A stretch of DNA of 64,000 nt from Globisporangium splendens (taxonomy: Eukaryota; Oomycota; Peronosporomycetes; Pythiales; Pythiaceae). The translations under genes and the position numbers were made by a program. The notes beneath the pieces are model-generated. The model was not told where the DNA came from. It saw only the letters and a program-made list of their open reading frames with translations, and did not search any database. Within the stretch, counting starts at the first letter, position 1; every line of letters starts with the position of its first letter. Of the stretch, positions 499-25,444 are shown piece by piece. The DNA is taken from the NCBI GenBank assembly GCA_006386115.1, contig VFIW01000004.1, positions 1 to 64,000 on the forward strand, read 5' to 3'.

Positions 499-1145
499 TG
501 TAGATTGCGCTATCCAAACAGTCCCTCAAACACGGCACACACGCTTGTGCCAGAGGAAGCGATCTCCCTACTTGGAGGGAGGAAGAAGACTTGAGGGCTT
601 GGAGGAAAATTTGCAACTGAATTGAAAATGGTTATGGTTCCTGTCGCTACTTACAAATGAACCCCAAGGGATCCTACACGTTTTATAACTAAAACCTAAA
701 CATACACAATAAAACCTATGAATCTGATATATATAACCTTGGGTACACTGAGGTTGAACCTACGGGATCTTCTAGAAGCTTGAACTTCAAGTCTTATTTA
801 AAATCCCTGCAAAGTGATTGGCTCGCGCCACTCACTTCAGGTGGCAGAGACACGTCGGTCTCGTCGCCAGTCCAGTTTCCCAAGCAGGAACCATCACTCA
901 GTACTTGATTAGTACATGGATGTTATCACTCTGTACTGATTAGTACATGAGAACAACATTCTGCACTGATCAGCACAGAGAACATTCGTGACGTCATCGA
1001 ATGACGTCACACGTGCATGTGGGGACTGTATTACCGTAATCCCTTTGTTATTTGTGTCTCCACAATGCACGCTGAAGGTGGTGTGTGCCACACTAGATCT
1101 GGGACAGATCCACCTTCATGTAATGGCTGGTTATGGCCCATTACA
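499..1145 (-). repeat. 3' LTR of element C
   Basis: About 650 bp. It matches the split 5' LTR: roughly 505-892 against 7505-7884, and 893-1145 against 23839-24099. On the minus strand it begins TGTAATGGGCC, where TGTAATGG is followed 11 nt later by its reverse complement CCATTACA. By eye there are about 8 differences in the last 255 bp. A TATA-rich stretch (about 727-740) lies near the middle. The first ~17 bp (499-515) align poorly with the other LTR. Confidence 0.85.
989..1009. promoter_or_regulatory. Paired TGACGTCA palindromes in LTR C
   Basis: Two perfect copies of TGACGTCA start at 989 and 1002, 13 nt apart, about 140 bp into the U3 side of the minus-strand LTR. This octamer is the classic CRE/ATF site of bZIP transcription factors. 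The same pair is kept in the other LTR copy. Its role as an enhancer is inferred. Confidence 0.55.
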
Positions 1146-1221: not shown

Positions 1222-2288
1222 ATGAAGCGACCAAGTGACCAAGTGAACCGTGAAGAACGTCCGTCGTCCAAGCGACAGCAGACAGCTCCAGAACTCTTTG
1301 ACATTTCTCCCATTCTGAAGAAGAAGGGGGAGCTCGAGTTCTACAAGGAGCGGTTCTTCAGTTGGTGTCGGATCAACGATCGCGATGATCCGAACCAACA
1401 CATCGCAGCCCAGAGAGACTCATGGCGAACATTTGTTCGTCTTGAGAACGAGAACAAAATGGAGCGTCTTCTTCGTCGTGGCAATGCTCGTGCCGAAAGA
1501 AGAACTCCCGCTGACGACAGAGCGAACCCTAGCTCTGGTCGTCGTAGTGTCGCCCCTGGCGACGCTACAAGCAGTTCTCATAGCTGCGGACCACGTCGGG
1601 AACATCAGACTCCAATGTCTGACGAGGCTCCCACGTGTCCGAGCTCAGTGGATATCCACGCCACCGAACTCTGTAGAAGCGTTGATGGTTCAACTGCTTC
1701 TTTCCTCGACGATGAGTCGGTCGATCTTCATGATCAACAATCGACTGAATCACCCAGCGATGCTCTCCCTGAGAGTCTAATAACGGGGGTGGGGCTGAAC
1801 GAGAAAACGATTGAGCGACTCTGGAAGTGGAAGAGTGCTCATCGTGGGCAAATCGAGGCGCTGCAGCAGCGTTGTTCGACGCTTGAGGAACGCTGCGAGA
1901 GTCTCGAGAACCTTGTCGCCGATCACGAGTCGAAGATCGACGTCCTGACAGAAGGTTCTGCCCAGTGTTCGGCTTTGGAGTCCCGTTACGAGGAACGGTT
2001 CCAACAGGTTCAGGATGAACTTGTTCGACTCCGAAGAACGAGAAGTCTCGTGAGTTGGCTCACGATCGCCTGTTGCGCTCTGTGGAAGAGGCAGGTTCGG
2101 CTCTCGAGGTACTTCGTGGTGAGTACCATTCTCGTCTTCAAGCGTTGGAGGCAGTGAAGGACCAATCCTTCGACGTCCTGCAACTCCTGTACGCCGAGAA
2201 GAATCTCCAGAGCGATGAGCTGTTTGCTCTTCGCAATCAAGTGGAGAAGCTTCACGATCAGCTCGATCGTTTGCGGAAGATCTCGTAG
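1222..2288 (+). pseudogene. Antisense ORF of element C (aORF-C), one frameshift
   Basis: Opposite to gag-pol of element C. It starts with ATG at 1222, 76 nt inside the 3' LTR, and stays open to about 2040. It then continues in the next frame from 2019 or later to the stop at 2286-2288, giving about 355 codons. The N-terminus is basic (KRPSDQ..SSKRQQ, a possible bipartite nuclear localisation signal). The middle has an EFYKERFFSW block and a SWRTFV..ENE block that resemble aORF-A. The last ~150 residues are heptad-rich and coiled-coil-like. It overlaps pol by about 720 nt. One missing base at 2019-2059 restores both this frame and pol. No known domain is recognised. The function is unknown. 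Confidence 0.6.
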
Positions 2289-7489: not shown

Positions 7490-7884
7490 TGTAAGAGGGC
7501 GCTGTTCACAACAGTCCCTCAAACACGGCACACACGCTTGTGCCAGAGGAAGCGATCTCCCGACTTGGAGGGAGGAAGAAGACTTGAGGGCTTGGAGGAA
7601 AAATTGCAACTGAATTAAAAATGGTTATGGTTCCTGTCGCTACTTACAAATGAACCCCAAGGGATCCTAGAGGTTATATAACTAAAACCTAAATATACAC
7701 AATAAAACCTATGAATATGATATATAAAACCTTGGGTACACTGAGGTTGAACCTACGGGATCTTCTAGAAGCTTGAACTTCAAGTCTTGTATAAAATCCC
7801 TGCAAAGTGATTGGCTCGCACCACTCACTCCAGGTGGCAGAGACACGTCGGTCTCGTCGCCAGGCCAGTTTCCCAAGCAGGAAC
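7490..7884 (-). repeat. 5' LTR of element C, PBS-proximal part
   Basis: This part ends abruptly at GGAAC (7880-7884), which is repeated at 23839-23843 on the far side of element A. The rest of this LTR resumes there. Differences from the left LTR are about 15 in 390 bp by eye, outside the variable last 17 bp. Confidence 0.9.
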
Positions 7885-12300: not shown

Positions 12301-13723
12301 GACGGACTGTTGGAAGTCAGTCTCGATGGACTTCATCTTCGGTCTTCCTGCTGACTCCAGCAAGAAGACTGGCATCCTCGTCATCGTGGATCGCTTCAGT
12401 AAGATGGTCCATCTCAGCGCTGTCCCTGCTAGCGTCACCGCAAAGCAGACAGCGCAGATATTCCTGGATTCTGTGTTTAGGTTACACGGAATGCCCACTG
12501 AAATCGTGTCGGACCGAGATCCACGATTCACAGCTGCCTTCTGGCAAGAGTTGTTCCGACTCTTGGGCACTCAGCTCAAGATGTCGACAGCTGATCATCC
12601 GCAGACAGATGGTCAGACCGAGCGTGTAAATCGCACGCTCGAGGGTATTCTGCGCAGCTATGCGCATTCATTCACTCACTGGAATGAATGTCTCCCTCTC
12701 GCAGAGTTTGCAATCAACAACTCTGTGCATGTCTCAACCGGGCACACGCCATTCTACGCGAACGCCCTCAGGCACCCACGTGTTCCGTCCATCCTCGGTG
12801 GGATGTCCCCTCCGTCGGTGACATCTCTCTTGAGTGGGGGAGGAGTCCGCGAAGCAGCTGCTTCGGAACAAGCGAAGAGCGCGGAGATCTCGCACCATCA
12901 TGGGCAGGCAACTGCTCATGCGACGATCGTCGACAAAGACATCGTTACAACAGTGTTGCAGCGGCAAGCTGTCATCCGCTTCGTCCGCGATTCAATCGCC
13001 GACGCAGTGGATGGTCAGAAAGAACAAGCGGACAAGTGTGGCCGCAAAAACACGAACGAGTTTCAACGAAATTCGTTTGTTTTATTATCGACTGCTAACC
13101 TACCTAACAGAGTGGTGAGCAGTGACAGCAACAAGTTGCTACCAAGATACATTGGCCCTTTCAAGGTCCTTGAAAGGATTGGGGACGCATACACGTTGGA
13201 GCTTCCTCCGACCATGCGTCTACACCCGACGTTCTACGTCGAGCGTCTCAAAGCGTATCATCGCCACGATGACTCGTTGGTCTCTTCCTCTTCAGGAGAC
13301 CATGGTCGCGAAGGATCCCAAGCACAAGCTTGTGATCAGCCTCGAGCCTCGAAAGCCGTCCCTCGAGCCGCTCGTGCTTCGCGATCATCTTGCTTAGCTC
13401 GGCCCGAAGTCGGAGAACCTCGTTCTCCCGCTCAGCGTACTTCAGCCGATCAAGAAGACGCTGATCACTCTGAGGATGCGCCTCAGAGTCACGAGCAGAT
13501 CTTCCCTCCTCCAGCTCCTCCGTTGCAAGACTCCGAGGGGAACCAACGCTGGATCGTGGAGAAGATACTTGCTCATCGCGATCGATCGTCGCGAGGGAAG
13601 AAGGAGCGCGTCTATCGCGTTCGTTGGCTTGGTTACCCACCAGATCGAGATACCTGGGAACCGGCCGCGATGCTCCAAGCCGATGTTCCTGGCTTGGTGC
13701 AGCAGTACGAGAGTCGACGCTAA
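9254..13723 (+). pseudogene. pol of element A, one in-frame stop in RNase H
   Basis: Single frame of 1490 codons apart from TAG at 11525-11527. Homology with pol of B and C shows the stop replaces a conserved Tyr (TAC to TAG) within the RNase H RVSYQSR-like segment. Domains in order: aspartic protease (DTGASSN, about 9570), RT with SYFDDVF (about 10990), RNase H (CDASDFATG, YTDHASL), integrase zinc finger and D,D,E core (11980-12700), and chromodomain (RVRWLGY..DTWEP, about 13615-13660). Its last 476 nt are overlapped by the antisense ORF. The stop makes it inactive unless suppressed. Confidence 0.9.
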
Positions 13724-13799
13724 TCGACTCTCGCTTCCACAACTCGCGGATTCGATCTTGCAATCCGCGAGGAAGCATCACGCCGTTGAAACCACGAAG
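13248..13799 (-). pseudogene. Antisense ORF of element A, C-terminal part (aORF-A')
   Basis: Minus-strand frame ending at 13248, opposite the pol linker and chromodomain. The visible part contains LLDRLKYAERENEVLRLRAE followed by further heptads, a clear coiled-coil. It is followed by a basic tail (LLKRKRPTSHRG). The 5' side is cut by element B at 13804. When B (13805-22193) and one GTGCT copy are left out (8394 nt, a multiple of 3), this frame continues in phase from the fragment at 22194-23252. No known domain is recognised. Confidence 0.6.
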
Positions 13800-13804
13800 G
13801 TGCT

Positions 13805-14283
13805 TGTAACGGGGTTACACTGTAACACGGTTACGCACTTGTGTTGTGCCACACAAACAAAACGAACCTTGCGATACGTAGAGTACGCGCAACAAGTTTA
13901 AGACCGAACCATGAGGTTCGTCGTACTTGCTCGAACCTTCACGGTGGAGCCGGCAGCCAGTCTGAGTGACGGCGCCTCCGATTGGATATAATTGAACATG
14001 CATTTCATCAAATCGCATAAGACTACTAGTGTTAGTCTTTCATAGCCACTCATTACCCCATGGGCAGTAATTACACTTGAGATTGCTATTGTTCATAGTT
14101 CCATTTTTACCGTTAACTAAAGTCTTTGGTTATCGACGGTTACTCTATAGAGACCTATAGGTAACCGATTGTTGCACTGCAGGAAGCAGGCAACCGCTCT
14201 CGGAACAGAGTCCTTGAGAGAAGCGTTGCATACGCTTCCTCACACACGTGCCGTGCTGCGTAACTCGGAAGTGTCCGGTTACA
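13805..14283 (+). repeat. 5' LTR of element B (internal deletion)
   Basis: 479 bp, against 535 bp in the 3' LTR and the solo LTR at 24910. The missing ~56 bp lies between two AGTT repeats near 14100, a typical short-repeat deletion. Outside the gap there are about 25 differences from the 3' LTR in 477 bp by hand count. Starts TGTAACGGGGTTACA, a 6-bp-arm palindrome. Confidence 0.95.
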
Positions 14284-14285
14284 AC

Positions 14286-14294
14286 TGGTAGCAC
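14286..14294 (+). other. Primer-binding site of element B
   Basis: TGGTAGCAC two bases downstream of the LTR, as in elements A and C. Confidence 0.7.
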
Positions 14295-14355
14295 TCGTAG
14301 TCAATCTACGACCCGGCAGAGGTTACTGCCTGAATCGCTTCCTCAAGGATTCATC

Positions 14356-15402
14356 ATGGCGTCAATTGACCCTGCGCAGTTCCCGCACCTCTCGGCTGAA
14401 CACCGGAGTGTGCTGACCCGAATGGCACAAGCGCTAGGCGACCAAGTCGCTCTAGACGTGCTCTCGGCGTCGCCGGAACAGCAAATCTTTCGACTCGAGC
14501 AGTTCGAGAACTTCTCGAACGCTCAGCGCCTCGAAGGAGAACGAAGTGCGCAAGCACAAATGCAAGCCACCGCAAGCTTGACCGCAGAGATGCTGCGCTC
14601 AGCTGCTGAGTCGCGCGAAGCGCTCGAGCGAGTGGTATCTGTGGTTACTGGCGCAGCCACGTCTTTGTCGAGTGCGGCTTCTGCGCCTCAGACACCCACG
14701 TCCCAAACTCCCTGCCCGAGAGCTGTCAAGATCGACGCTCCGAAATTCGATGGTGCGGATGGCGACAAGCTCATCCACTGGCTACTCGCCGTGGAGCGTT
14801 GCGCCAAGGCTCAGCTCATCGACAGCAACGAGCAGATGGTGTCTTACGCCATCTCGAACCTGCGCGGTCGAGCGTCGGAATGGGCATTCTCGACGTTGCT
14901 CACCGATGAGTGTGCATTCGACACGTGGGATATTTTCCGTGCGAGAATCACCGCCATGTATCAGCCTCCGAACAACGAAGTGCTGTTGCAAGGTCGTTTC
15001 TTCTCCTTGAGACAAGGGAAGCTCTCACTGGAACGATACATCCAGGAGATGAGAAGCCTGTGCGCGGCGATCACGACCAGCCCTTTGCCTGAGTCTGTGA
15101 AAGTGCCTGCGTTTCTCAACGGCCTCAACAGTGGACCAGCGCGTCAGGAGTTGTACCGACGCTTGCCGCCCACGATGGAAGATGCGATCCGCATTGCGCT
15201 CGTTGAGCAGCAATCGTTCAGAGTCAGCCGACCTGATTGGAACGCTGGCCGCCACAACGGTGCGCATCACAGCCACCGAGCAGTCACGGATGAGCGGCGC
15301 TTCCATGGTCCGACACCAATGGATCTCAGCAGCGCCGAAGTGACCTGCTTTAATTGTGGCAAGCGGGGACACTATCAGTCGAAGTGTCCCGCTCCAAGGT
15401 AG
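14356..15402 (+). CDS. gag of element B
   Basis: 348 residues from ATG 14356 (the first ATG in a good context after the PBS) to TAG 15400-15402. It has a capsid-like region (ISNLRGRASEWAFS..MYQPPNNEVLLQ) and a zinc knuckle CFNCGKRGHYQSKC five residues before the stop. It is more diverged than the Gags of A and C are from each other. The pol frame is -1 relative to gag and overlaps by 49 nt. Confidence 0.88.
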   Translation: MASIDPAQFPHLSAEHRSVLTRMAQALGDQVALDVLSASPEQQIFRLEQFENFSNAQRLEGERSAQAQMQATASLTAEMLRSAAESREALERVVSVVTGAATSLSSAASAPQTPTSQTPCPRAVKIDAPKFDGADGDKLIHWLLAVERCAKAQLIDSNEQMVSYAISNLRGRASEWAFSTLLTDECAFDTWDIFRARITAMYQPPNNEVLLQGRFFSLRQGKLSLERYIQEMRSLCAAITTSPLPESVKVPAFLNGLNSGPARQELYRRLPPTMEDAIRIALVEQQSFRVSRPDWNAGRHNGAHHSHRAVTDERRFHGPTPMDLSSAEVTCFNCGKRGHYQSKCPAPR

Positions 15403-18400
15403 CCCGCTCCTCGCACTGGAAATCAGGCGAGAGACTACCAAACGCCGCGCAGCAACCACGCTCATCGAGGTGGCAGATCTGCTGCGGCAAGAAAAGGAAA
15501 CGGAATGTCTCAGTAGAAGCGGGACGCTCTACTGAGACAGACTCTATAGCTTCGGCGTCGCCGACTACTAGAGTCGTGCAGATGGGAAGCTTAGTCCCAG
15601 GAGCTCTTGGCAACAAGGCTCCGAGTGAGATGTTGGTATATAGCGCCGATGTGAAGGGCTATGAGAAGAAAATGACGGTTCTTGTTGACTGCGGTGCGTC
15701 ACAGAACTTTGTCTCGAAGGCAGCTCTGGAACAGAGTCTGCAAGCGTATGAGCGACTTGTCCACAGTGGCAAGCGCGAGAAGATGATCGTACGTCTGGCC
15801 GATGGGTCGACAGTACACACTGAAGGGGTTCAAGTCGAACTCTCTTTCGGTTTTTGCGACTTTGTCTGCAAAGAAACGTTCGTGGTACTAGCGATGGGGT
15901 CGAAGTACGACCTCATCCTAGGGATGCCTTGGCTGGCGAAACATCAGCCTTGGATCGATTGGCGAGCACGCACAATCGGAAGCTCCATCCCTTCCTCTGG
16001 TGAAGAGCGAAGGTTGCGGGAAAATTTCCACGCAACGGATGCGAGCTTTGAACACGCTGTGGCAGGGAGCCCAGCAGGAAGACATGCGGCGGCAGCGAGC
16101 CCCGCTTCAAACACTCACGCTGTGGCAGGGAGCCCAGCTGGAAGATGCGCTGAGGCAGGGAGCCCAGCAAAGAGATCAACTGCGGCAGGTAGCCCAGTTT
16201 GTGCGGAAGCGCCAGAAAGTCCAGACGTGGACGCTGGTGCGCAAGTGTGCGGCTCCAGAGCACCCGAGCCAGCCCCCGCAAGTGACAGCGACAGTACAGG
16301 TGTACACGCGTCAGCCAGCTCGTACCACCCCGACGGTGCAGTACTGGAGCTCAGAACCGCGAGGTCGCGCGTTCGCATCAACCGACGAGGGCGACGCAAG
16401 TTGTCAGCTCGCGAGAGAGACAGTGCATTGGCATCTGTTGCTGAGGAAACGGCCGCCTCGCATATGATTGCCCCATCTCTCAATGCAGCTGCAACTTCGC
16501 TGCGCGCCTTCGACAGGATCTCGGATCCGTCGATAGATCGCGCTCACGTTGACGTGGCGCTCAGACGCGCGACGCGCAGTCCGGAAGCAAACGCATCAGA
16601 CGAAGTGTTCTTCGCTGAATTTGCGGCGCTCCATGAGCTGCCGAGTACCGTTGAGGCGATTGTATCCCTCGAAGAAATGAGCTATGAGCTCTTTCTTACG
16701 GATCTAGAGCGTGATCAGATCCGCGAGATCGTCGTTCCGACTGCGTTCACGCGTAGCGAACTATGCACCTCGCCCACTGCGGATGAGAGTGTTTTGGAGC
16801 CAGACAAACAGAAACGGTTTGCTGCTCAGGATTGGGACGCCGTGAAAGGCAGTCCATATTTTGACTTGTTGTGGGAGTTCAAAGATGTGTTTCCCGACAA
16901 AGTGCCAAGTGCCCTGCCCGTTGACCGTGGCGTACGGCACGAGATCGATCTCGAGCCCGGGAGCAAATATTGCGTGACCAGACAATGGCCGCTGCCCCGC
17001 GAGCAGGTTGAGGCTATCGACGAGTTCTTCGCGAAACGAGCCCTCGCCAGTCATGTGAGAGAAAGCAAGTCTCCACATAGCTCACCCACGTTTTGTGTGC
17101 GGAAAGCGACTGGTGGCTGGCGCATTGTTCACGCTTTCAACAAGCCGAACGCCGCCACCATTCCGGCACAAACGCCGATCCCAAGGAAGGATGTCTTGAT
17201 CGACTCCATGGGCGGCTCGACAGTGTTCTCCGCACTGGATCTGATGGACGGGTTCTATCAGATCCTCATGCGAGAGAGCGACGTTCCCTTGACGGCAGTA
17301 AGCACACCCAGCGGGATGCTGTGGGAGTGGCTCGTTATGCCGCAAGGTTTGAAGAATGCACCAGCGACGTTCAACCGTCTGGTAACGCATCTTCTGCGTC
17401 CTCATCGTGCGTATGCACCGAGCTATTTCGATAACATCTTCGTGCACAAGAGACATTTGCGCTCAGTGTTGCAGTGCTTACGAGACAACAGTCTGTATTG
17501 CAACCTGAAGAAATGCATCTTTGGCGCCTCAGAGATTCCGATCCTGGGCTGCTATGTTGGCAAAGCTGGCGTCCGCGCGGACCCAGAGAAGATCAAGGCG
17601 ATCGCCGACTGGCCGATCCCAAAGAACGTCAAGGACTTGCGCAAGTGGCTTGGCTTGGCAAATTACTTGCACAAGTACAGTCACAACTATGCGGCAAGAG
17701 TCCGTCCACTCACGCATCTCTTGAAAAAGGATGTCGAGTGGGACTGGACGAATGATGTCATGAATGCATTCATTGACGTGAAGGAGTCGCTTGTTCGCGC
17801 TCCTGTCCTGGCGTTGCCGGACCACACGAAAGCCTTCAGTGTCGTGTGCGATGCCAGCGATTTTGCAATCGGCTGTGCGCTGATGCAGAAGGATGATGAC
17901 GGCCATGAGCGCGCCGTGTCATACCAAAGCAGACTGCTTAAGGCAGCTGAAAAGAATTATCCTGTGCACGACAAGGAGCTGCTTGCGATCAAGTACGCCC
18001 TCTTGAAGTTCAGGGTCCACCTTTTGGGTGCGACACCGTTCGTTGTGTACACGGATCACGCGTCCTTGCGGACCGCGATCAATTCCCCCCATTTATCGCA
18101 GCGAATGGCGCGATGGCTTGCATTCTTCTCCGAGTTCAACTTTCGGGTCGAATACAAGCCGGGAAAGGAAAATGTTCTGGCGGACGCGCTCTCGCGCCGT
18201 CCAGATCACGAGTCGAGCGCTGGCAGCAGCTCTGACGCCCTGTGTTTGGAGCGCACTCCTGATCTCATGCATCTGAGCATCAGTCGAGTGCAAACAAAGC
18301 TCAAGGACAATATTCAGTCGCTTTATGCAAAGGACGATGAGTGTCGCTTGTTGATTGCTCACTTTGACGGCTCGTCCAAAGAGTCATTGCCTGCCAAACT

Positions 18401-20504
18401 CGAGTCAAAGCTTGCTCGGTTTAGTTACCACGATGGGTTGTTGTGGCATCGACTGTCCAACTTTGATTACCCGCGTGTGTATGTACCGCATGACCAGGAT
18501 CTGAAACTTTCGATCCTGCATGAGTTTCACGATACACCAGCGAGTGGGCATCTCGGACGTGAAAAGACCTTCTCGCAAGTGTCTAATGTGTTTTGGTGGC
18601 CACACCAATACAAATGGGTGGCCAATTATGTACGCTCATGCGAGCAGTGCCAGCGCGTGAAGCCTGCGGGCAAGAACAAAGCGCCGCTGCCGATTCCGCA
18701 AGACTGCTGGAAGTCGGTCAGCATGGATTTCGTCTTCGGTTTCCCGGAAGACAAGGCGCGCAACACAGGCGTCGTCGTGTTCGTCGACCGACTGAGCAAA
18801 ATGGTGCATGTTGCACCCGTGCGCAAGCATGTCACTGCGCAAGAGACGGCGTGCCTATTTTTAGAGCACGTGTTCCGCTATCACGGCTTGCCCGAGTCTA
18901 TTGTATCAGACCGGGACCCGCGTTTCACCGCTGCCTTTTGGCGCGAACTCTTTCGCCTGCTCGGCACAGATCTGGCGTTGTCCACTGCCGATCACCCCGA
19001 GACAGACGGGCAAACCGAGCGCGTGAACCGTGTCGTCGAGGATATTCTTCGCAGCACCGCTGTCGATCATCCCCGCGACTGGAGCCGCTGGCTGCCGTAC
19101 GCCGAGTTTGCTATAAATAGCAGCGAGCACGCCTCTACGGCCGCGACTCCGTTCTATTTTAACTCGCTGCGGCACCCGCGCGTACCTGCCACTCTGTTTG
19201 AGGGCGTCGACCGTTCTGCGGTAGGAGGGCAACTCGCCGCGCTCGATGCGCCGCCTGTGCGATCGCGTTCCGAATCTGTCACGGTCTTACCGGACAGCAC
19301 GCAGAGTATTGACATGTCGGGCACGGTACTGAGTTACGGTACTCGTGTCCCTATAGATGGATCACCCACGGTACCAAGTTACGGTACTCGTGTCCCTATA
19401 GATGAATCTTCCACGGTACCGAATTACGGTACTCGTGCTAAAAATAGCCAGTCTCAGACGGAATCAGGCGACTGCTCGTGTGAGCGTCAGCCACGAAAGG
19501 AAGGACGCGCGGTGTCACACACCGGCGCAGAAATAGATCTCTCTGCAGCACGCGCTGCGAGAGCAACGAAAAAGCAAGACAAAGCCGTCGCGGCAGCGCG
19601 GCAATTTGTTGATGAGCGCGCAGCATTGTTGCGTCGCGTACGCGACCAACTAGCTGCTGCGCAAGACAAGCAAAAGCTCTACGCCGATAAATCGGGTAGA
19701 AAGAACAAACAAACGTTTTGTGTGGGTGATAAAGTGCTTTTAAGCATTAAAAACCTACCAAACGATGCAGTCACAACGCTCCCCAGCGGGAGTAAGTTGT
19801 TGCCACGATTCATCGGGCCATACACTGTTGTGGAGAAGATTGGATACTTGAATTACAAGCTCGATCTCCCAACGAGAATGGCAACGCACCCCGTGTTCTA
19901 CGTGGGTTTGCTCAAGCGCTACCATGACGCTACTGTGGATTTTTATCCCAGTCCGGGAGAACGTCGGTCTCATCAGGGGGCTCAGACGCCGCCCATCGAG
20001 ACACGAGCGCGTTGTGCCTCTCCCAAAGCGTCTTCACCCGCGGAGCGTACCTCGCGTGGAAGTTCTTCCCGCGGACATGGTACTCCTCCAGCATCTGACG
20101 AGCTTCCTTCAGCTCCGTCTCAAGCGCTGTCACCCTCTGCTTCAACAGCGAGGTTTCGTCCAGATATTGCTGGCGGAGGATACGGACGGCTTGCTGTAGC
20201 GCCCCCAAAGATGATGCGTTCGCGTGAACCATCTGAACCATCGCATCTGGTGCAACCACCGATGCTGAAGCGAAGTAAGGCGCCACCTGTCCCGCTGATT
20301 GACAAGCAGGGACAGCGCCACTACCATGTTGAGCGCCTGCTGCGTGTGCAGCGGCGTAAGGGGAACACCCACTATCTTGTGAAGTGGCGTGGGTACGATG
20401 TGTCGCAGAGCTCGTGGGAGCCTGCTGAGCGTCTTCGCGAAGACGTCCCGGATCTTGTTGACGCCTTTGAGGCGCAACTGAGGGACTGTCATTCGCGCGA
20501 GTAA
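15354..20504 (+). CDS. pol of element B, complete frame but damaged RT
   Basis: Open for about 1716 codons. Domains: aspartic protease with DCGASQN (Cys in place of the usual Thr) near 15690; a GSPAGR-type repetitive spacer (16060-16210); RT; RNase H (CDASDFAIG, YTDHASL); integrase (zinc finger and D,D,E core with HPETDGQTERVNR); a spacer with 15-residue repeats; and a chromodomain (LVKWRGYDVSQSSWEP) near the end. The RT active site reads SYFDNIF instead of SYFDD (Asn codon 17433-17435). About 15 residues after it are missing, with GTGCAC at the deletion joint. The last 575 nt are overlapped by the antisense ORF. Expression probably needs -1 frameshifting from gag. Confidence 0.9.
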   Translation: MWQAGTLSVEVSRSKVARSSHWKSGERLPNAAQQPRSSRWQICCGKKRKRNVSVEAGRSTETDSIASASPTTRVVQMGSLVPGALGNKAPSEMLVYSADVKGYEKKMTVLVDCGASQNFVSKAALEQSLQAYERLVHSGKREKMIVRLADGSTVHTEGVQVELSFGFCDFVCKETFVVLAMGSKYDLILGMPWLAKHQPWIDWRARTIGSSIPSSGEERRLRENFHATDASFEHAVAGSPAGRHAAAASPASNTHAVAGSPAGRCAEAGSPAKRSTAAGSPVCAEAPESPDVDAGAQVCGSRAPEPAPASDSDSTGVHASASSYHPDGAVLELRTARSRVRINRRGRRKLSARERDSALASVAEETAASHMIAPSLNAAATSLRAFDRISDPSIDRAHVDVALRRATRSPEANASDEVFFAEFAALHELPSTVEAIVSLEEMSYELFLTDLERDQIREIVVPTAFTRSELCTSPTADESVLEPDKQKRFAAQDWDAVKGSPYFDLLWEFKDVFPDKVPSALPVDRGVRHEIDLEPGSKYCVTRQWPLPREQVEAIDEFFAKRALASHVRESKSPHSSPTFCVRKATGGWRIVHAFNKPNAATIPAQTPIPRKDVLIDSMGGSTVFSALDLMDGFYQILMRESDVPLTAVSTPSGMLWEWLVMPQGLKNAPATFNRLVTHLLRPHRAYAPSYFDNIFVHKRHLRSVLQCLRDNSLYCNLKKCIFGASEIPILGCYVGKAGVRADPEKIKAIADWPIPKNVKDLRKWLGLANYLHKYSHNYAARVRPLTHLLKKDVEWDWTNDVMNAFIDVKESLVRAPVLALPDHTKAFSVVCDASDFAIGCALMQKDDDGHERAVSYQSRLLKAAEKNYPVHDKELLAIKYALLKFRVHLLGATPFVVYTDHASLRTAINSPHLSQRMARWLAFFSEFNFRVEYKPGKENVLADALSRRPDHESSAGSSSDALCLERTPDLMHLSISRVQTKLKDNIQSLYAKDDECRLLIAHFDGSSKESLPAKLESKLARFSYHDGLLWHRLSNFDYPRVYVPHDQDLKLSILHEFHDTPASGHLGREKTFSQVSNVFWWPHQYKWVANYVRSCEQCQRVKPAGKNKAPLPIPQDCWKSVSMDFVFGFPEDKARNTGVVVFVDRLSKMVHVAPVRKHVTAQETACLFLEHVFRYHGLPESIVSDRDPRFTAAFWRELFRLLGTDLALSTADHPETDGQTERVNRVVEDILRSTAVDHPRDWSRWLPYAEFAINSSEHASTAATPFYFNSLRHPRVPATLFEGVDRSAVGGQLAALDAPPVRSRSESVTVLPDSTQSIDMSGTVLSYGTRVPIDGSPTVPSYGTRVPIDESSTVPNYGTRAKNSQSQTESGDCSCERQPRKEGRAVSHTGAEIDLSAARAARATKKQDKAVAAARQFVDERAALLRRVRDQLAAAQDKQKLYADKSGRKNKQTFCVGDKVLLSIKNLPNDAVTTLPSGSKLLPRFIGPYTVVEKIGYLNYKLDLPTRMATHPVFYVGLLKRYHDATVDFYPSPGERRSHQGAQTPPIETRARCASPKASSPAERTSRGSSSRGHGTPPASDELPSAPSQALSPSASTARFRPDIAGGGYGRLAVAPPKMMRSREPSEPSHLVQPPMLKRSKAPPVPLIDKQGQRHYHVERLLRVQRRKGNTHYLVKWRGYDVSQSSWEPAERLREDVPDLVDAFEAQLRDCHSRE
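19323..19437 (+). repeat. 45-bp tandem repeat in pol of element B
   Basis: Two full copies and a partial third of a 45-nt unit encode the 15-residue motif TV(L/P)SYGTRVPID(G/E)S. It lies between integrase and the GPY/chromodomain part, in a region expected to be a flexible linker. A and C lack it. Confidence 0.85.
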
Positions 20505-21474
20505 TTTGTCGTCTGTTATCAGCGCGACCACCCGCTCGCAGAGGCGTGCCACCGCCCTGCTTGGAGCGAAACAGACGAACACGGTCAACTGCAAATTGCA
20601 TGCGTTGACTGCGCTGCGCTGTCGGATCGGTAGACACTGTGCGAGTGCTACCTCCCTTAATTTTATTGATGCACGACATGAAGTCGGCATCGCACTCTTC
20701 TTCCGTCTCTCCAACAAAGAGGACGACTGGGATCGGGTGAATACGCAATTCCCCATTTTCATCCCGCAATCGCTTTTCACGCCAATTTTTAAATTGAGCG
20801 TCGTAGTCCCGCGCACAAAGTCTGGCTCTCGCGAGCAGATTCGATGCGGTCTTGCCAGCCGGCCATAGTTCTGGCGGCGGCATTTCGGGCAGTGAGTACT
20901 TGAGCTCATCGTGAATGATGGCTCGCACTCCTGCCTCTTCGTTTGTAATGAGGACTTCGTGCTTCCTCTTACGATTGTTGACAGCCTCAACGGCGTCATT
21001 TTCCTCCTTCATCCGATACATCGAGACGTCAGCGGATGGATCTCGCTCGAGCTCGTGGAGATAAGCGGCGTGTCGCTCGCTTTGCAACTCCTCGTACTCG
21101 ACCCACTCGTCGACGGAGCCGAGCTTCACGGTGAGCGCTCCCTCGTCTTCAAGCGAGCTCCCGTCATTGTCAACGACGAGGAATTCCTCAGTCGCTTCCT
21201 CCTCTTCCAAAGCACGCGCGAACAACGGCTTCACGGAAGGGAGATCTCCGAACCGTAGCTCACTGCTTATAGCAGGAGCGCTATCAGATGTGAGAGCAGA
21301 CCTGCCGTCGCTCTCCGCAGGCACGTCGACCGCATCCGCGGTGACCGTCGTTCGTCTTGCGCTCGACGCGACCTCTCTGTCTTCCTCGCGCTTGCGCAAA
21401 GTTTCGACGAGAGTGCCGACGCCTTCCCCTTTTTGTCGCGCGAGCTTCTCGCGGACAGCTTTGTTGGTGGCCAT
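19930..21474 (-). CDS. Antisense ORF of element B (aORF-B), intact
   Basis: 515 codons from ATG 21474, about 185 nt inside the 3' LTR, on the strand opposite gag-pol. The N-terminal half is acidic (EDEGALTVK, DEWVEYEELQ), with a basic cluster RKRKHE. A GETEEECDAD segment lies in the middle. A Gln/Ala-rich low-complexity region follows. The C-terminal ~100 residues (SSLGALQQAVRILRQQ, LLKQRVTALETELKEARQM) look coiled-coil. About 970 nt lie where no sense ORF exists and the last 575 nt lie under pol. First codon positions of the two genes face each other, as in A and C. No family is recognised. Transcription from the antisense side of the 3' LTR is only inferred. Confidence 0.6.
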   Translation of the reverse strand: MATNKAVREKLARQKGEGVGTLVETLRKREEDREVASSARRTTVTADAVDVPAESDGRSALTSDSAPAISSELRFGDLPSVKPLFARALEEEEATEEFLVVDNDGSSLEDEGALTVKLGSVDEWVEYEELQSERHAAYLHELERDPSADVSMYRMKEENDAVEAVNNRKRKHEVLITNEEAGVRAIIHDELKYSLPEMPPPELWPAGKTASNLLARARLCARDYDAQFKNWREKRLRDENGELRIHPIPVVLFVGETEEECDADFMSCINKIKGGSTRTVSTDPTAQRSQRMQFAVDRVRLFRSKQGGGTPLRAGGRADNRRQITRANDSPSVAPQRRQQDPGRLREDAQQAPTSSATHRTHATSQDSGCSPYAAAHAAGAQHGSGAVPACQSAGQVAPYFASASVVAPDAMVQMVHANASSLGALQQAVRILRQQYLDETSLLKQRVTALETELKEARQMLEEYHVRGKNFHARYAPRVKTLWERHNALVSRWAASEPPDETDVLPDWDKNPQ

Positions 21475-21658
21475 GATACTCACGTGCGCGAGCACAGTGA
21501 CTATATGTGCCAACACTCGGTGAAATTAACGCACGCGTCGCCGCTGTGCTCTTTCCCGAGGAATACACGAATGCTCCCCTTTCTCGGCGCACACGCGCGA
21601 GATCCACACGTTTCTCACACCGACCCTTCGAGTGTTTCGCACTTTAAGTGGGGGGTGG

Positions 21659-22193
21659 TGTAACGGGGTTACACTGTAACATGGTTACGCACGTGTGTTG
21701 TGCCACACAACCAAACCGAACCTTGCGGTACGTAGAGTACGCGCAACAAGTTTAAGACCGAACCATGAGGTTCGTCGTACTTGATCGAACCTTCACGGTG
21801 GAGTCGGCACCCAGTCTGAGTGACGGCGCCTCCGATTGAATATAATTGAACATGCATTTCGTCCAATCACATAAGACAATTAGCGTTAGTCTTTCATAGC
21901 CACTCATTGCCCCATGGGGAGTAATTACACTTGAGATTGCTATTGTTCATAGTTACATAAAGATAATCCAGGTTGCTCTACAGAGGGCAACCTCCAACAA
22001 ATAAACAGTTCCATTTTTTACCGTTAACTGAGTCTTTGGTTATCGACGGTTACTCTATAGAGATCTATAGGTAACCGATTGTTGCACTGCAGGAAGCAGG
22101 CAACCGCTCTCGGAAGAGAGTCCTTGAGAGAAGCGTTGCATACGCTTCCACACACACGTACCGTGCTGCGTAACTCGGAAGTGTCCGGTTGCA
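21659..22193 (+). repeat. 3' LTR of element B
   Basis: 535 bp, preceded by the purine tract AAGTGGGGGGTGG at 21646-21658 and followed by the target duplication GTGCT (22194-22198). It keeps the ~56 bp that the 5' LTR has lost. Confidence 0.95.
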
Positions 22194-23252
22194 GTGCTCC
22201 TCAGTCAACTGAGGATCATCGCTGGTGCAGATGCGGCAACCCCTCGGTGTGGTCTTGACTCCACACGGAACCCCAAGATCCACGCATTCCTCGTGGATCG
22301 CCAACAACTTTCCAACGGCATTGTGCCGGAGGAACTTATCCCGATTATCTCGCAATCGAGAGATACACTTCGCAGCGTCTTCGTTGAAATTCACAACGAA
22401 GGCACCCCACGCTTGCGAAAGGAACAGCGCTTGTTTCTCAGCGCTGTGAGACTTCTTTGACTTCGATCGACCATCGAAGTACCGCATCGAATGGAAAAGG
22501 TCGATGTAAAACTCCTCGCGCGCCTTGGGATGGAAGTTCTGTCGAAGGACGAAGTCATCATCCTTGATGGTACTAACATCGTACAGCGCGTGAGTGCCCG
22601 CACGCTGGGTGCCACGATGCGCACGAACCCAATTGGGTTTGGGCGCCCATAAGTGACTCCAGCTAGAAGGGACGAAATCCATCCCTTCAGAAGGACCCGT
22701 CACCGGATCCTTCTCCTCCGCCGGAAAGGCAAGATGGCGTGGCAACTCGCTATTTCCCGATGACGCAGTAACCTGCGCATCAGATTCGGATTCCACATCG
22801 AAGAGCAAGTCCTCGAGTGGATCGACAGCTTCCAGTTCACAATTGGACGCGTCCAGCGAGAGAAGGATATTTCTCGCTGCATTCACCAGGTCGGGATCAG
22901 CTGACGCTAATCCTTCCCGACCGAGATTTTCCATCGTGTTGGCAGATGCCGCGCTTTCCGACGCTCCGACGTCGGAAATGGCAACCGCCACGGTGGATCC
23001 GCTCGTTTCTCCGTGAGGAGATCCCTCCTCACGACGCTTCTTCCGCGTAGGCTCATTCAAGAGGGCCGCGGACGACGAACGTTCGCTTCGTTTCGTTTGA
23101 GATTCGAACGGTCAACGGAAGAAGACTCGGCTTCTTCCTCCCGATCGTCACGCACGACATTCGTCGTGGTGCTACTCATTGGAGTGTTGCAAGGAGTCAC
23201 CTCCTCGCTACTCGACTCGTAGTCAACAGCATCACTGTCGATCGAAGACATT
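22194..23252 (-). pseudogene. Antisense ORF of element A, N-terminal part
   Basis: Minus strand. ATG 23252 opens a Ser/Asp/Glu-rich segment (MSSIDSDAVDYESSSEE) that runs to a stop at 23057. The adjacent frame (open from about 23118) carries on through a basic NLS-like PTRKKRREEG and stays open to the B insertion, so one frameshift near 23060-23115 is likely. Residues encoded around 22517-22344 (EEFYIDLFHS, AWGAFVVNFNEDAAKCISRL) resemble aORF-C. The frame ends at DPQLTEEH where element B begins, and joins in phase with the fragment ending at 13248. The unbroken gene would have had about 535 codons. Confidence 0.55.
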
Positions 23253-23451: not shown

Positions 23452-23838
23452 TGTAATGGGGCCACCCATTACATGGGTTCCCGGGTCAGGAGAGTGTGGG
23501 TTTTCTCCCACATGGGTTTTACCACCTCTTCCGAACCCACCCACGACGTACAGTTGGAGACACATTAATATGTGTCACTCATGAACACTGTACGTAGCCA
23601 TTTGCATATTAGCCAATAAGACTAAGCCGTTAAGATTTAATCCCATTGGATGATAGTCGGACTGGACATCCGATTATCTACCAATGAGAGACACCGTAGG
23701 TTTCAGTCACTACGATTGCATGTTAGCACTTTAACGTTTTAATTCACTTCTCAATTTGCACGGTAACGCGCAAAGCTCCCTTCCTTTCACCTGCGCTTCC
23801 TCAACGCACGTGCACGCCGTGTAACGAGTCCCGTTACA
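23452..23838 (+). repeat. 3' LTR of element A
   Basis: 387 bp, preceded by the polypurine tract CGGGGGGATGA (23441-23451) and followed by the target duplication GGAAC at 23839-23843. About 8 substitutions separate it from the 5' LTR. Confidence 0.95.
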
Positions 23839-23843
23839 GGAAC

Positions 23844-24099
23844 CATCATTCAGTACTTGATTAGTACATGGATGTTATCACTCTATACTGATTAGTACAT
23901 GAGAACAACATTCTGCACTGATCAGCACAGAGAACACTCGTGACGTCATCGAATGACGTCACACGTGCATGTGGGGACTGTCTTACCGTAATCCCTTTTG
24001 TTATTTGTGTCTCCACAATGCACGCTGAAGGTGGTGTGTGCCACACTAGATCTGGGGACAGATCCACCTTCATGTGATGGCTGGTTATGGCCAATTACA
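23844..24099 (-). repeat. 5' LTR of element C, outer part
   Basis: Continuation of the LTR fragment that stops at 7884. It matches 898-1145 with about 8 differences including two 1-nt indels. On the minus strand it starts TGTAATTGGCC at 24099. It contains three tandem imperfect palindromes of the GTACTGATTAGTAC type (23850-23935). Confidence 0.9.
23941..23961. promoter_or_regulatory. Paired TGACGTCA palindromes, second LTR copy
   Basis: TGACGTCA at 23941 and 23954, unchanged from the pair at 989-1009, while neighbouring bases differ. Likely bZIP binding sites in the U3 part. Confidence 0.55.
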
Positions 24100-24909
24100 G
24101 GTGGAGGTTGTTGTTCTTTATATTTACTGAGTGACCAAGTTCACAGTCGCCTGTCTTCGACAGTTGTTTGTTGTTATACCCGAACTCCGGGACCCTCGGT
24201 TTGGCACAAAGTGCGCTCTCGGGAATATCCATGTAAGTCCTGCCGCATGGAGCGCGATTCGTCCTATGAAGACTTCAGTACTGGCCGACTGGATCAGTGG
24301 CGTTTTATAGCGGGTGCACATGGGCGGTAGGCGGCGACTGCGACTCCCGAGTAACGACGAAGTGCGAGGGATCGCTGGAGGTCGCGGCGGGCGGAGCAGT
24401 AGATCGTCTATAACGCTTCTGAAGGGGTGACAGCATTCCACAGCCCGGAAGACGTTCCGGGTATCGACAAGCCTGCCGTGAAAATATTAACGTGGGGGAC
24501 GACCGACAATTCATGGGTTCAAGACGTTCGACAAACACAGAGGAGCGCGGGGTGCTCTGGCCATATGGTTTGATATGGGTGTTTCCTTCTGTCTGGCAGT
24601 TATGTGATACCACCGCCAAGCAGCTGTCTGTGCTGCTACGGGGGTGGTCGAACCTTATCCGAACACAAACTCGGGTACGCAATGTGGAGTAATTTTTCTT
24701 TTGTTAAGAGCCCGCTGGTCTTACCGTTTGGCTGTTGACTTTTTCTCTGAAAATGAAGATTGTGTTCTACAACTGCTATTCTGGGAAAGTCACTTTATTG
24801 CAATTTGAACACATACGACATAACAAAACCGGCGCCTCGATAGTGCCTTCAACTGTAGCTGATGTCCTTGCGCTTTGTATTTCTTCGCCCACAAGTCGAT
24901 CATGTCCAA
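24100..24909. other. Intergenic DNA between element C and a solo LTR
   Basis: 810 bp. No convincing coding frame, RNA gene or repeat unit was recognised. Short open frames here lack known motifs. Confidence 0.6.
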
Positions 24910-25444
24910 TGTAACCGGACACTTCCGAGTTGCGCAGCACGGTACGTGTGTGAGGAAGCGTATGCAACGCTTCTCTCAAGGACTCTCTTCCGAGAGCGGT
25001 TGCCTGCTTCCTGCAGTGCAACAATCGGTTACCTATAGGTCTCTATAGAGTAACCGTCGATAACCAAAGGCTTTAGTTAACGGTAAAAATGGAACTGTTT
25101 ATTTGTTGGAGGTTGCCCTCTGTAGGACAACCTGGATTATCTTTATGTAACTATGAACAATAGCAATCTCAAGTGTAATTACTCCCCATGGGACAATGAG
25201 TGGCTATGAAAGACTAACGCTAGTTGTCTTATGTGATTGAGTGAAATGCATGTTCAATTATATCCAATCGGAGGCGCCGTCACTCAGACTGGCTGCCGGC
25301 TCCACCGTGAAGGTTCGAGCAAGTACGACGAACCTCGTGGTTCGGTCTTAAACTTGTTGCGCGTACTCTACGTACCGCAAGGTTCGTTTTGTTTGTGTGG
25401 CACAACACAAGTGCGTAACCATGTTACAGTGTAACCCCGTTACA
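24910..25444 (-). repeat. Solo LTR of family B
   Basis: 535 bp, full-length and collinear with the 3' LTR of element B, in reverse orientation. No internal region is present on either side. The flanking 5-mers differ (TCCAA on the left, GATGG on the right), so it is not a simple LTR-LTR recombination product with a preserved target duplication. Confidence 0.95.

What the first reader, a model, noticed from the sequence alone, without database searches (positions are those of the whole stretch)
19930..21474. A conserved antisense gene overlapping the chromodomain end of pol in three Ty3/gypsy families
All three elements (A, B, C) carry a long ORF on the strand opposite gag-pol. It begins 76-200 nt inside the 3' LTR and ends under the pol linker/chromodomain (overlaps of about 476, 575 and 720 nt). 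In each case first codon positions of pol and the aORF face each other. Each C-terminus is coiled-coil and each protein has basic NLS-like clusters. aORF-B is intact at 515 codons, of which about 970 nt lie where no sense ORF exists. Extra antisense ORFs are known in some plant Ty3/gypsy (Tat) elements. I know of no description in oomycete chromodomain elements. The function could be regulatory, capsid-related or targeting.
Basis: partly seen in the sequence, partly recalled or inferred. Interest (0 to 1): 0.9.

Follow-up and report, generated by a model that had tools for sequence, protein, structure and literature searches.

The report
Antisense gene interlocked with retrotransposon polymerase
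Several families of jumping elements (Ty3/gypsy retrotransposons) in the oomycete Globisporangium splendens carry an extra conserved gene on the opposite DNA strand, woven through the end of their polymerase gene so that selection appears to act mainly on one strand at a time; its protein is predicted to form a coiled coil and likely regulates the element.

Summary
Window 19930-21474 (-) is an intact 515-codon antisense ORF running from 184 nt inside the 3' LTR of element B to the end of the integrase SH3 domain under pol. Elements A and C have equivalents in the same antisense phase. It is a real gene: relatives from other sources keep it at 38-65% amino-acid identity; between families the part outside pol evolves with dN/dS 0.26-0.36; 62 of 84 listed genome matches to aORF-B have no stop. 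New here is a relay of constraint inside the overlap. Under the chromodomain, pol is constrained and the aORF shows no constraint. Under the linker between SH3 and chromodomain the balance reverses towards the antisense coiled coil. The direction is the same in four of four family pairs, significant in three; strength differs between tests. A and C appear to share an N-terminal domain; B's does not match. No fold or Pfam hit gives a function. [quoted passage not shown] my literature searches listed none in oomycetes and none with this interlocked overlap. Most likely a trans-acting, probably nuclear accessory protein; transcription and function are untested.

The parts
19930..21474 (-). aORF-B, antisense protein gene, 514 aa + stop; intact
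20505..21474 (-). non-overlap part of aORF-B (N-terminal 323 codons); aORF frame dN/dS 0.26-0.27 (B/D, B/B2); predicted alpha/beta domain at residues ~190-305
20322..20504 (.). overlap under the chromodomain and pol tail: pol frame constrained, aORF frame not detectably
19930..20321 (.). overlap under the pol linker: encodes the aORF coiled coil; balance of constraint towards the aORF
15354..20504 (+). pol of element B: protease-like, RT, RNase H, integrase, SH3_Tf2-1 (to ~19926), chromodomain (20322-20474)
14248..15402 (+). gag of element B (Retrotrans_gag, zinc knuckle); coordinates of the mechanical ORF
13805..14283 (+). 5' LTR of element B (target duplication GTGCT at 13800-13804 and 22194-22198)
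   Evidence: read from sequence
21659..22193 (+). 3' LTR of element B; purine tract just before it
   Evidence: read from sequence
1222..2288 (+). aORF-A (antisense to pol A, which is on the minus strand); this copy has a frameshift near 2037
507..1145 (-). 3' LTR of element A
22194..23251 (-). aORF-C, N-terminal piece; frameshift near 23060; cut by the insertion of element B
13248..13804 (-). aORF-C, C-terminal piece on the other side of element B
23452..23838 (+). 3' LTR of element C (target duplication GGAAC at 7880-7884 and 23839-23843)

Best explanation
The antisense ORF is a protein-coding gene under purifying selection, carried between pol and the 3' LTR of at least three Ty3/gypsy chromodomain families, and it is likely translated from an antisense transcript that would start in or beside the 3' LTR, giving a predicted coiled-coil, probably nuclear accessory protein that would act in trans on the element's own expression or integration. 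Shown: an N-terminal part with amino-acid level constraint outside pol; a middle part under the chromodomain, where the pol frame carries the constraint; a C-terminal part under the pol linker, where the balance shifts to the antisense frame; and, in A, B and C, a stop beside the end of the conserved integrase SH3 domain. The overlap is thus divided between the strands: each gene tends to put its loosely constrained part over the other's constrained part. Predicted: the coiled coil. Inferred: sense and antisense transcription through the same 3' region would tend to exclude each other, so a copy would make either gag-pol or the antisense protein; the coiled coil would multimerise the protein and the N-terminal domain would bind the target (element DNA, RNA, or the integration complex). 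Action in trans is inferred from aORF damage in some copies whose pol is complete.
For: Homologs: 34 proteins for B (6 from sources other than NCBI, down to 38%), 13 for C (each G. splendens), 80 for A (18 from sources other than NCBI, down to 43%). In the B alignment (window protein plus 8 of the 34) the antisense C-terminus keeps invariant residues (the YAPRVK.LW block, the final P-Q). No stop in 62 of 84 (aORF-B), 95 of 117 (A), 98 of 116 (A2) and 54 of 58 (C piece) listed matches; my counts of printed rows, partial matches included. Non-overlap dN/dS: A/A2 0.27, B/D 0.26, B/B2 0.27, C/C2 0.36. Linker: aORF 0.29, 0.40, 0.20, 0.28 against pol 1.95, 1.25, 1.13, 0.72; chromodomain: aORF 1.99, 1.77, 1.24, 1.80 against pol 0.29, 0.19, 0.25, 0.16, in the order A/A2, B/D, B/B2, C/C2. 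The switch between segments has Fisher p 1.5e-4, 1.3e-3, 0.06 and 0.011. Counting both frames together, pol constraint under the chromodomain holds in four of four pairs (0.57, 0.55, 0.51, 0.23, intervals below 1). Predicted structures: A, a three-helix domain (57-126) and a 166-residue helix; B, an alpha/beta domain (190-305) and an 88-residue helix. A and C probably share the N-terminal domain: profile score 28.7 against a maximum of 21.8 in 100 shuffles.
Against: No transcript or protein evidence was available; the NCBI gene models come from AUGUSTUS with transcriptome hints (PMC7163027), which does not prove an antisense mRNA. No Pfam, PDB-sequence or fold match gives a function; the best Pfam values (TMF_TATA_bd 2e-5 and TPR_MLP1_2 1.5e-4, each in 2 of 21 A members) are coiled-coil families. 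Recent pairs show weaker constraint outside pol: L045/L026 0.89 at dS 0.08, L046 (mosaic) against B1 0.63-0.64; within B1 and B2 pN/pS is 0.43-0.57, and 1.07-1.23 in the overlap taken whole. In the both-frames count the aORF's linker constraint (NN/SN) is clear for B/B2 (0.21) and C/C2 (0.26), marginal for A/A2 (0.74, interval 0.53-1.00) and absent for B/D (1.01, near saturation); the pol linker ratio (NN/NS) is above 1 for A/A2 and B/D but 0.50 and 0.43 for B/B2 and C/C2, with intervals reaching above 1, so a free pol linker is not shown for those two. Third-position excess under the linker alone is not significant for B/B2 and C/C2 (p 0.14, 0.36). Of 29 B-type copies with a pol frame of 1,687 codons or more (one further with a stop dropped), 26 could be paired with an aORF match: 19 without stops (3 partial), 7 with stops. 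B's basic cluster is not conserved. The oomycete initiator motif (recalled) is not found upstream except once, in D. The A-C domain match has an hhalign probability of only 20% (E 0.001).
Confidence: 0.5

Rival explanations
1. The antisense protein is an integration-targeting or tethering partner that works with the chromodomain integrase, for instance by multimerising integration complexes at chosen chromatin.
For: It occurs in chromodomain elements in the four families checked, lies opposite that exon, and has a predicted long coiled coil.
Against: No domain with a known chromatin function found; neighbourhood on opposite strands is no evidence of a complex; insertion sites were not compared.
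Confidence: 0.15
2. It is a structural particle or RNA-chaperone protein, comparable to the coiled-coil ORF1p of LINE-1, that helps package the element RNA.
For: Architecture of a small domain plus a long coiled coil; weak PDB sequence matches of A to LINE-1 ORF1p.
Against: Element B has its own gag with capsid and zinc knuckle; the ORF1p matches are E 0.05-0.1, on the coiled coil only, among unrelated coiled coils that score better; no RNA-binding domain found.
Confidence: 0.1
3. It is a self-limiting copy-number control protein made from the antisense strand, comparable in effect to the Ty1 p22 restriction protein (recalled).
For: Antisense expression would interfere with pol twice, by RNA and by protein; aORF-intact copies are common even where pol is broken (18 of 38 copies, chosen among the best aORF matches).
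Against: The families are amplified; a pure inhibitor should be lost by the winning copies, yet it is kept over dS near 2.
Confidence: 0.1
4. The antisense RNA, not the protein, is functional, for instance as a source of small RNAs; the frame is a by-product.
For: Antisense non-coding RNAs of retroelements are known (PMC7264820).
Against: Between families, changes concentrate at the third position of the aORF codons and dN/dS is far below 1 in the part with no sense gene.
Confidence: 0.04
5. A chance open frame produced by pol constraint and GC-rich sequence.
For: The phase leaves some antisense frames open: synonymous shuffles keep C's overlap open in 25%; another frame holds a 255-286 codon sense ORF in several B copies.
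Against: The five other frames hold stops in the non-overlap of each of the 14 sequences checked; conserved homologs and dN/dS as above.
Confidence: 0.01

Closest known systems
Antisense additional ORFs between pol and 3' LTR (aORF-3R) of plant LTR retrotransposons: Grande gene23, RIRE2, Retand ORF4/TRP28, PvRetro13; and fungal Boty (PMC7264820, parts 1-2 of 3 read; PMC11963269, abstract and passages seen)
   Same: Position, opposite strand, conservation in most copies, function unknown, nuclear role suspected; Smc-type domains in some.
   Different: Retand has a 2.9-6.6 kb region between pol and LTR with room for the gene; here about a third to two thirds of the gene lies under pol itself. 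No Retand-type domain seen. Host is an oomycete. Constraint alternates between strands.
HTLV-1 HBZ and HIV-1 ASP (HBZ from PMC11963269 passages, HTLV 3' LTR antisense promoter from PMC7264820; ASP from search listings)
   Same: Antisense genes at the 3' end of an LTR element (HTLV); antisense promoter in the 3' LTR; HBZ is nuclear.
   Different: No bZIP match was seen here (HBZ as a bZIP protein is recalled); start of transcription unknown here; sequences were not compared directly.
Segregated overlapping genes of HIV-1 (Env/Rev overlap, PMC9119678, abstract seen)
   Same: Each nucleotide stretch is mostly owned by one of two overlapping genes; such division is described where one protein is structured and the other disordered.
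   Different: There both genes lie on the same strand (recalled) and were tested by mutational scanning; here they are on opposite strands and the evidence is evolutionary.
Oomycete Ty3/gypsy elements with chromodomain, Chronos (PMC5348765, passages seen)
   Same: Oomycete Ty3/gypsy with a chromodomain.
   Different: Chronos carries an extra plant-type RNase H, not seen in pol B; the word antisense does not occur in the main text of that paper.

Membership tests
aORF-3R (antisense additional ORF between pol and 3' LTR) | Opposite strand to gag-pol, at the end of pol, upstream of the 3' LTR | tested here: met
aORF-3R (antisense additional ORF between pol and 3' LTR) | Present and conserved in most copies of the family | tested here: met
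   (listed matches only, lower bounds); dN/dS
aORF-3R (antisense additional ORF between pol and 3' LTR) | Antisense transcription from its own or an LTR promoter (known for Grande) | not testable with these tools
   no RNA data; only a sequence scan of upstream regions
Retand-type antisense gene | TRP28 / Transposase_28 domain (PF04195) | tested here: inconclusive
   not among the families printed; one search prints 25 of 93 weak families
HBZ-like retroviral antisense gene | bZIP domain | tested here: inconclusive
   not among the families printed, which are mostly generic coiled coils
HBZ-like retroviral antisense gene | Transcription starts in the 3' LTR | not testable with these tools
   shared start codons lie 76-200 nt outside the LTR; start of transcription unknown
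Ty3/gypsy element with chromodomain | RT, RNase H, integrase and C-terminal chromodomain in pol | tested here: met
   for B (C's pol is split over several ORFs, of which the last one was scanned); A's chromodomain by tblastn at 35-56% identity
Chronos | Additional plant/archaeal-type RNase H in pol | tested here: not met
   no second RNase H family among Pfam matches of pol B at E 0.1; A and C not tested over whole pol
Chromovirus clade (by RT phylogeny) | RT groups with chromoviruses | not tested
   no RT tree was built

The most novel reading that the evidence does not exclude
An ancient two-strand gene pair in oomycete retrotransposons in which the antisense gene owns part of the polymerase polyprotein: the pol linker between integrase and chromodomain is not selected as protein but is written by the antisense coiled coil, while the chromodomain writes the antisense protein's disordered middle. 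The arrangement predates the divergence of the families and would be a strand-switched regulator comparable to HBZ, arisen independently outside retroviruses.
Probability: 0.3. Interest if true: 0.88.

Novelty: new variant of a known kind. Interest (0 to 1): 0.72.

Why it matters
Antisense genes of retroelements are hard to prove, because the sense gene confounds the test. Here three family groups with well over two hundred listed copies give separate comparisons and a stretch without any sense gene, so the coding nature is settled by sequence. The alternation of constraint shows how two genes can share both strands with little conflict, and warns that pol linker sequence in such elements should not be read as polymerase function alone. 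It also points to a set of unknown, highly amplified proteins that the gene catalogue of this plant pathogen lists as ordinary hypothetical proteins.

Tried and rejected

Limits: homologs from sources other than NCBI (labelled ena, jgi, lgn; probably metagenomes) were seen as proteins only, so their antisense position is unchecked. Alignments were given part of what was found: A1 8 of 34 plus the window protein, A2 20 of 80 plus the query, A3 7 of 13 plus the query. NG86 dN/dS is biased in overlaps, hence; several pairs are near saturation. B2/D repeats the B/D pattern but is not independent. D is one damaged copy, C2 (L071) has two stops. In neutral simulations of 500 runs the observed third-position share exceeded the 99.9% point for the A and B/D linkers and the B non-overlap, and only about reached it for the A and C non-overlaps. 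Singletons were not less constrained than shared changes, contrary to my expectation for dead copies. The species name rests on database names and genome size. On rechecking I lowered the probability of the novel case from 0.35 to 0.3, because a free pol linker is not shown for B/B2 and C/C2.
Full report
What is in the window. The window lies in a 53.3-Mb, 195-contig assembly. The nearest database proteins, 98% identical, are named Globisporangium splendens, and the published draft genome is 53.3 Mb (PMC7163027 read whole). Three Ty3/gypsy elements are nested. Element A, on the minus strand, has its 3' LTR at 507-1145. Its 5' LTR (7499-7884 plus 23839-24099) is split by element C, which carries target duplication GGAAC. 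C in turn is split by element B (13805-22193, target duplication GTGCT), which landed inside C's antisense gene (duplications read from sequence). Pol B has RT, RNase H, integrase, SH3_Tf2-1 and chromodomain.

The antisense ORF. On the minus strand ATG 21474 to stop 19930 gives 514 residues. The stop lies next to the end of the SH3 domain of pol (about 19926), so the ORF runs under the linker, the chromodomain and the tail of pol, then over 970 nt with no pol. In complete copies of A and C the layout is the same, with the aORF stop within about 25 nt of the SH3 end (by Pfam or tblastn boundaries) and the same phase, first codon position facing first codon position. A fourth family, D (one copy, L023, 43-46% identical to B over residues 50-438 of the aORF), has its aORF opposite a chromodomain in the same phase.

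Conservation. The protein search found 34 relatives of aORF-B, 13 of C and 80 of A. Those from sources other than NCBI number 6, 0 and 18, down to 38% (B) and 43% (A). In the genome, 84, 58, 117 and 116 matches were listed for B, C (a 177-residue piece), A and A2; of these 62, 54, 95 and 98 have no stop (my row counts; partial matches included; the A and A2 lists share places; lists are lower bounds). 18 of the 58 C matches sit in a full 565-codon open frame.

Selection where there is no sense gene. Between families, dN/dS outside pol is 0.26-0.36 with dS from 0.36 to 1.96, and differences concentrate at the third aORF codon position (for example 178 against 119 and 96 in B/B2). In the pol frame of the same stretch the ratio is 1.1-1.7 and there are stops. 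Closer pairs are less clear: L045 against B1 gives 0.89 at dS 0.08, and the mosaic L046 0.63-0.64. In 14 sequences checked, the aORF frame has no stop in 13 while each other frame has at least one in each.

Selection in the overlap. Cutting the overlap at the chromodomain boundary gives opposite answers on its two sides. Under the chromodomain the pol frame is constrained (0.29, 0.19, 0.25, 0.16 for A/A2, B/D, B/B2, C/C2) and the aORF frame is not (1.99, 1.77, 1.24, 1.80). Under the linker the aORF frame is constrained (0.29, 0.40, 0.20, 0.28) and the pol frame is not, or less (1.95, 1.25, 1.13, 0.72). Since this phase has no sites that are silent in both frames, one-frame ratios depress each other. 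I therefore also counted changes by their effect in both frames. Rates of changes silent in the aORF only, against silent in pol only, are 2.5, 1.4, 2.5 and 1.7 to one under the linker and 0.3, 0.4, 0.5 and 0.3 to one under the chromodomain (my division of the printed counts by the printed opportunities). The interaction is significant for A, B/D and C and suggestive for B/B2. In the stricter ratios, pol constraint under the chromodomain is significant in four of four pairs; aORF constraint under the linker is clear in two, marginal in one and absent in one (B/D, near saturation); and the pol linker is above 1 in A/A2 and B/D but undecided in the other two.

Within-family polymorphism. Within B1 (24 copies) and B2 (12 copies), 36 of the 40 fetched (L045, L046, L047 and L050 left out as divergent, mosaic or broken), pN/pS is 0.43-0.57 outside pol and 1.07-1.23 in the overlap taken whole, with no stops; the copies were chosen among the best aORF matches, so the absence of stops there is by selection. 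In 38 of the 40 with enough pol sequence, the pol frame upstream of the overlap is interrupted in 18. Conversely, of 29 copies with pol frames of at least 1,687 codons (one more with a stop in the query range dropped), 19 paired aORFs have no stop, 7 have stops and 3 could not be paired. So aORF and pol decay independently in single copies, as expected for products that can be supplied in trans (inferred).

Protein anatomy. AlphaFold2 with 21 sequences gives A a fairly confident small three-helix domain (57-126) and one 166-residue helix; with 9 sequences it gives B an alpha/beta domain at about 190-305 and an 88-residue helix, with long low-confidence stretches between, which is where the chromodomain lies on the other strand. 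Mean pLDDT is 70.6 and 58.4, so these are rough. The non-overlap domains of A and C are probably related (score 28.7, highest of 100 shuffles 21.8; hhalign probability 20%, E 0.001); B's is not detectably so. No known functional domain or fold was identified.

Mechanism. The best reading is an accessory protein made from an antisense transcript of the 3' end of the element. Shown: coding, conservation, layout, division of constraint between segments. Predicted: coiled coil. Inferred: antisense promoter in or near the 3' LTR, nuclear location, action in trans, exclusion between sense and antisense expression. A review of plant antisense ORFs proposes a similar regulatory role and cites nuclear Grande GENE23 with its own promoter (PMC7264820, parts 1 and 2 of 3 read).

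Novelty. Antisense genes in this position are a known kind in plants and in fungal Boty. Searches for oomycete cases and for antisense ORFs of LTR elements in general listed none in oomycetes; the library holds open-licence papers only. The oomycete retrotransposon paper PMC5348765 has no occurrence of 'antisense' in its main text. I therefore call it a new variant: a new host group, and an interlocked overlap with alternating constraint, which I did not see described for a retrotransposon in those listings.

Noticed in passing
window 989-996 and 1002-1009: Two perfect TGACGTCA palindromes 13 nt apart in the LTR of element A, 213-233 nt upstream of the antisense ATG; the pair is in 6 of 6 A loci and 4 of 5 A2 loci. 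The count in the window alone is not significant (5 matches; 6 of 100 shuffles reach it). It would suit a bidirectional bZIP-bound promoter.
   Followed up: partly
window 507-24099: Three nested elements: C (duplication GGAAC) in the 5' LTR of A, and B (duplication GTGCT) in the antisense gene of C.
   Followed up: partly
L046 (G000:C119:12700-16700): A mosaic aORF: N-terminus like B2, the rest like B1, a sign of recombination; B1 and B2 aORFs are 95% identical under the pol linker but 49% outside pol.
   Followed up: partly
proteins P0004, P0008, P0093, P0097: Database gene models that fuse an aORF to Gag, Copia or pol pieces; probably annotation artefacts across neighbouring element sequence.
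   Followed up: no
window about 19230-19440: Pol B has a length-variable stretch with a short tandem repeat (19322-19437) before the SH3 domain, where copies split.
   Followed up: no
window 24907-25444: A further LTR of type B in inverted orientation, about 95% identical, without a second LTR to make an element of its own in the self-comparison.
   Followed up: no
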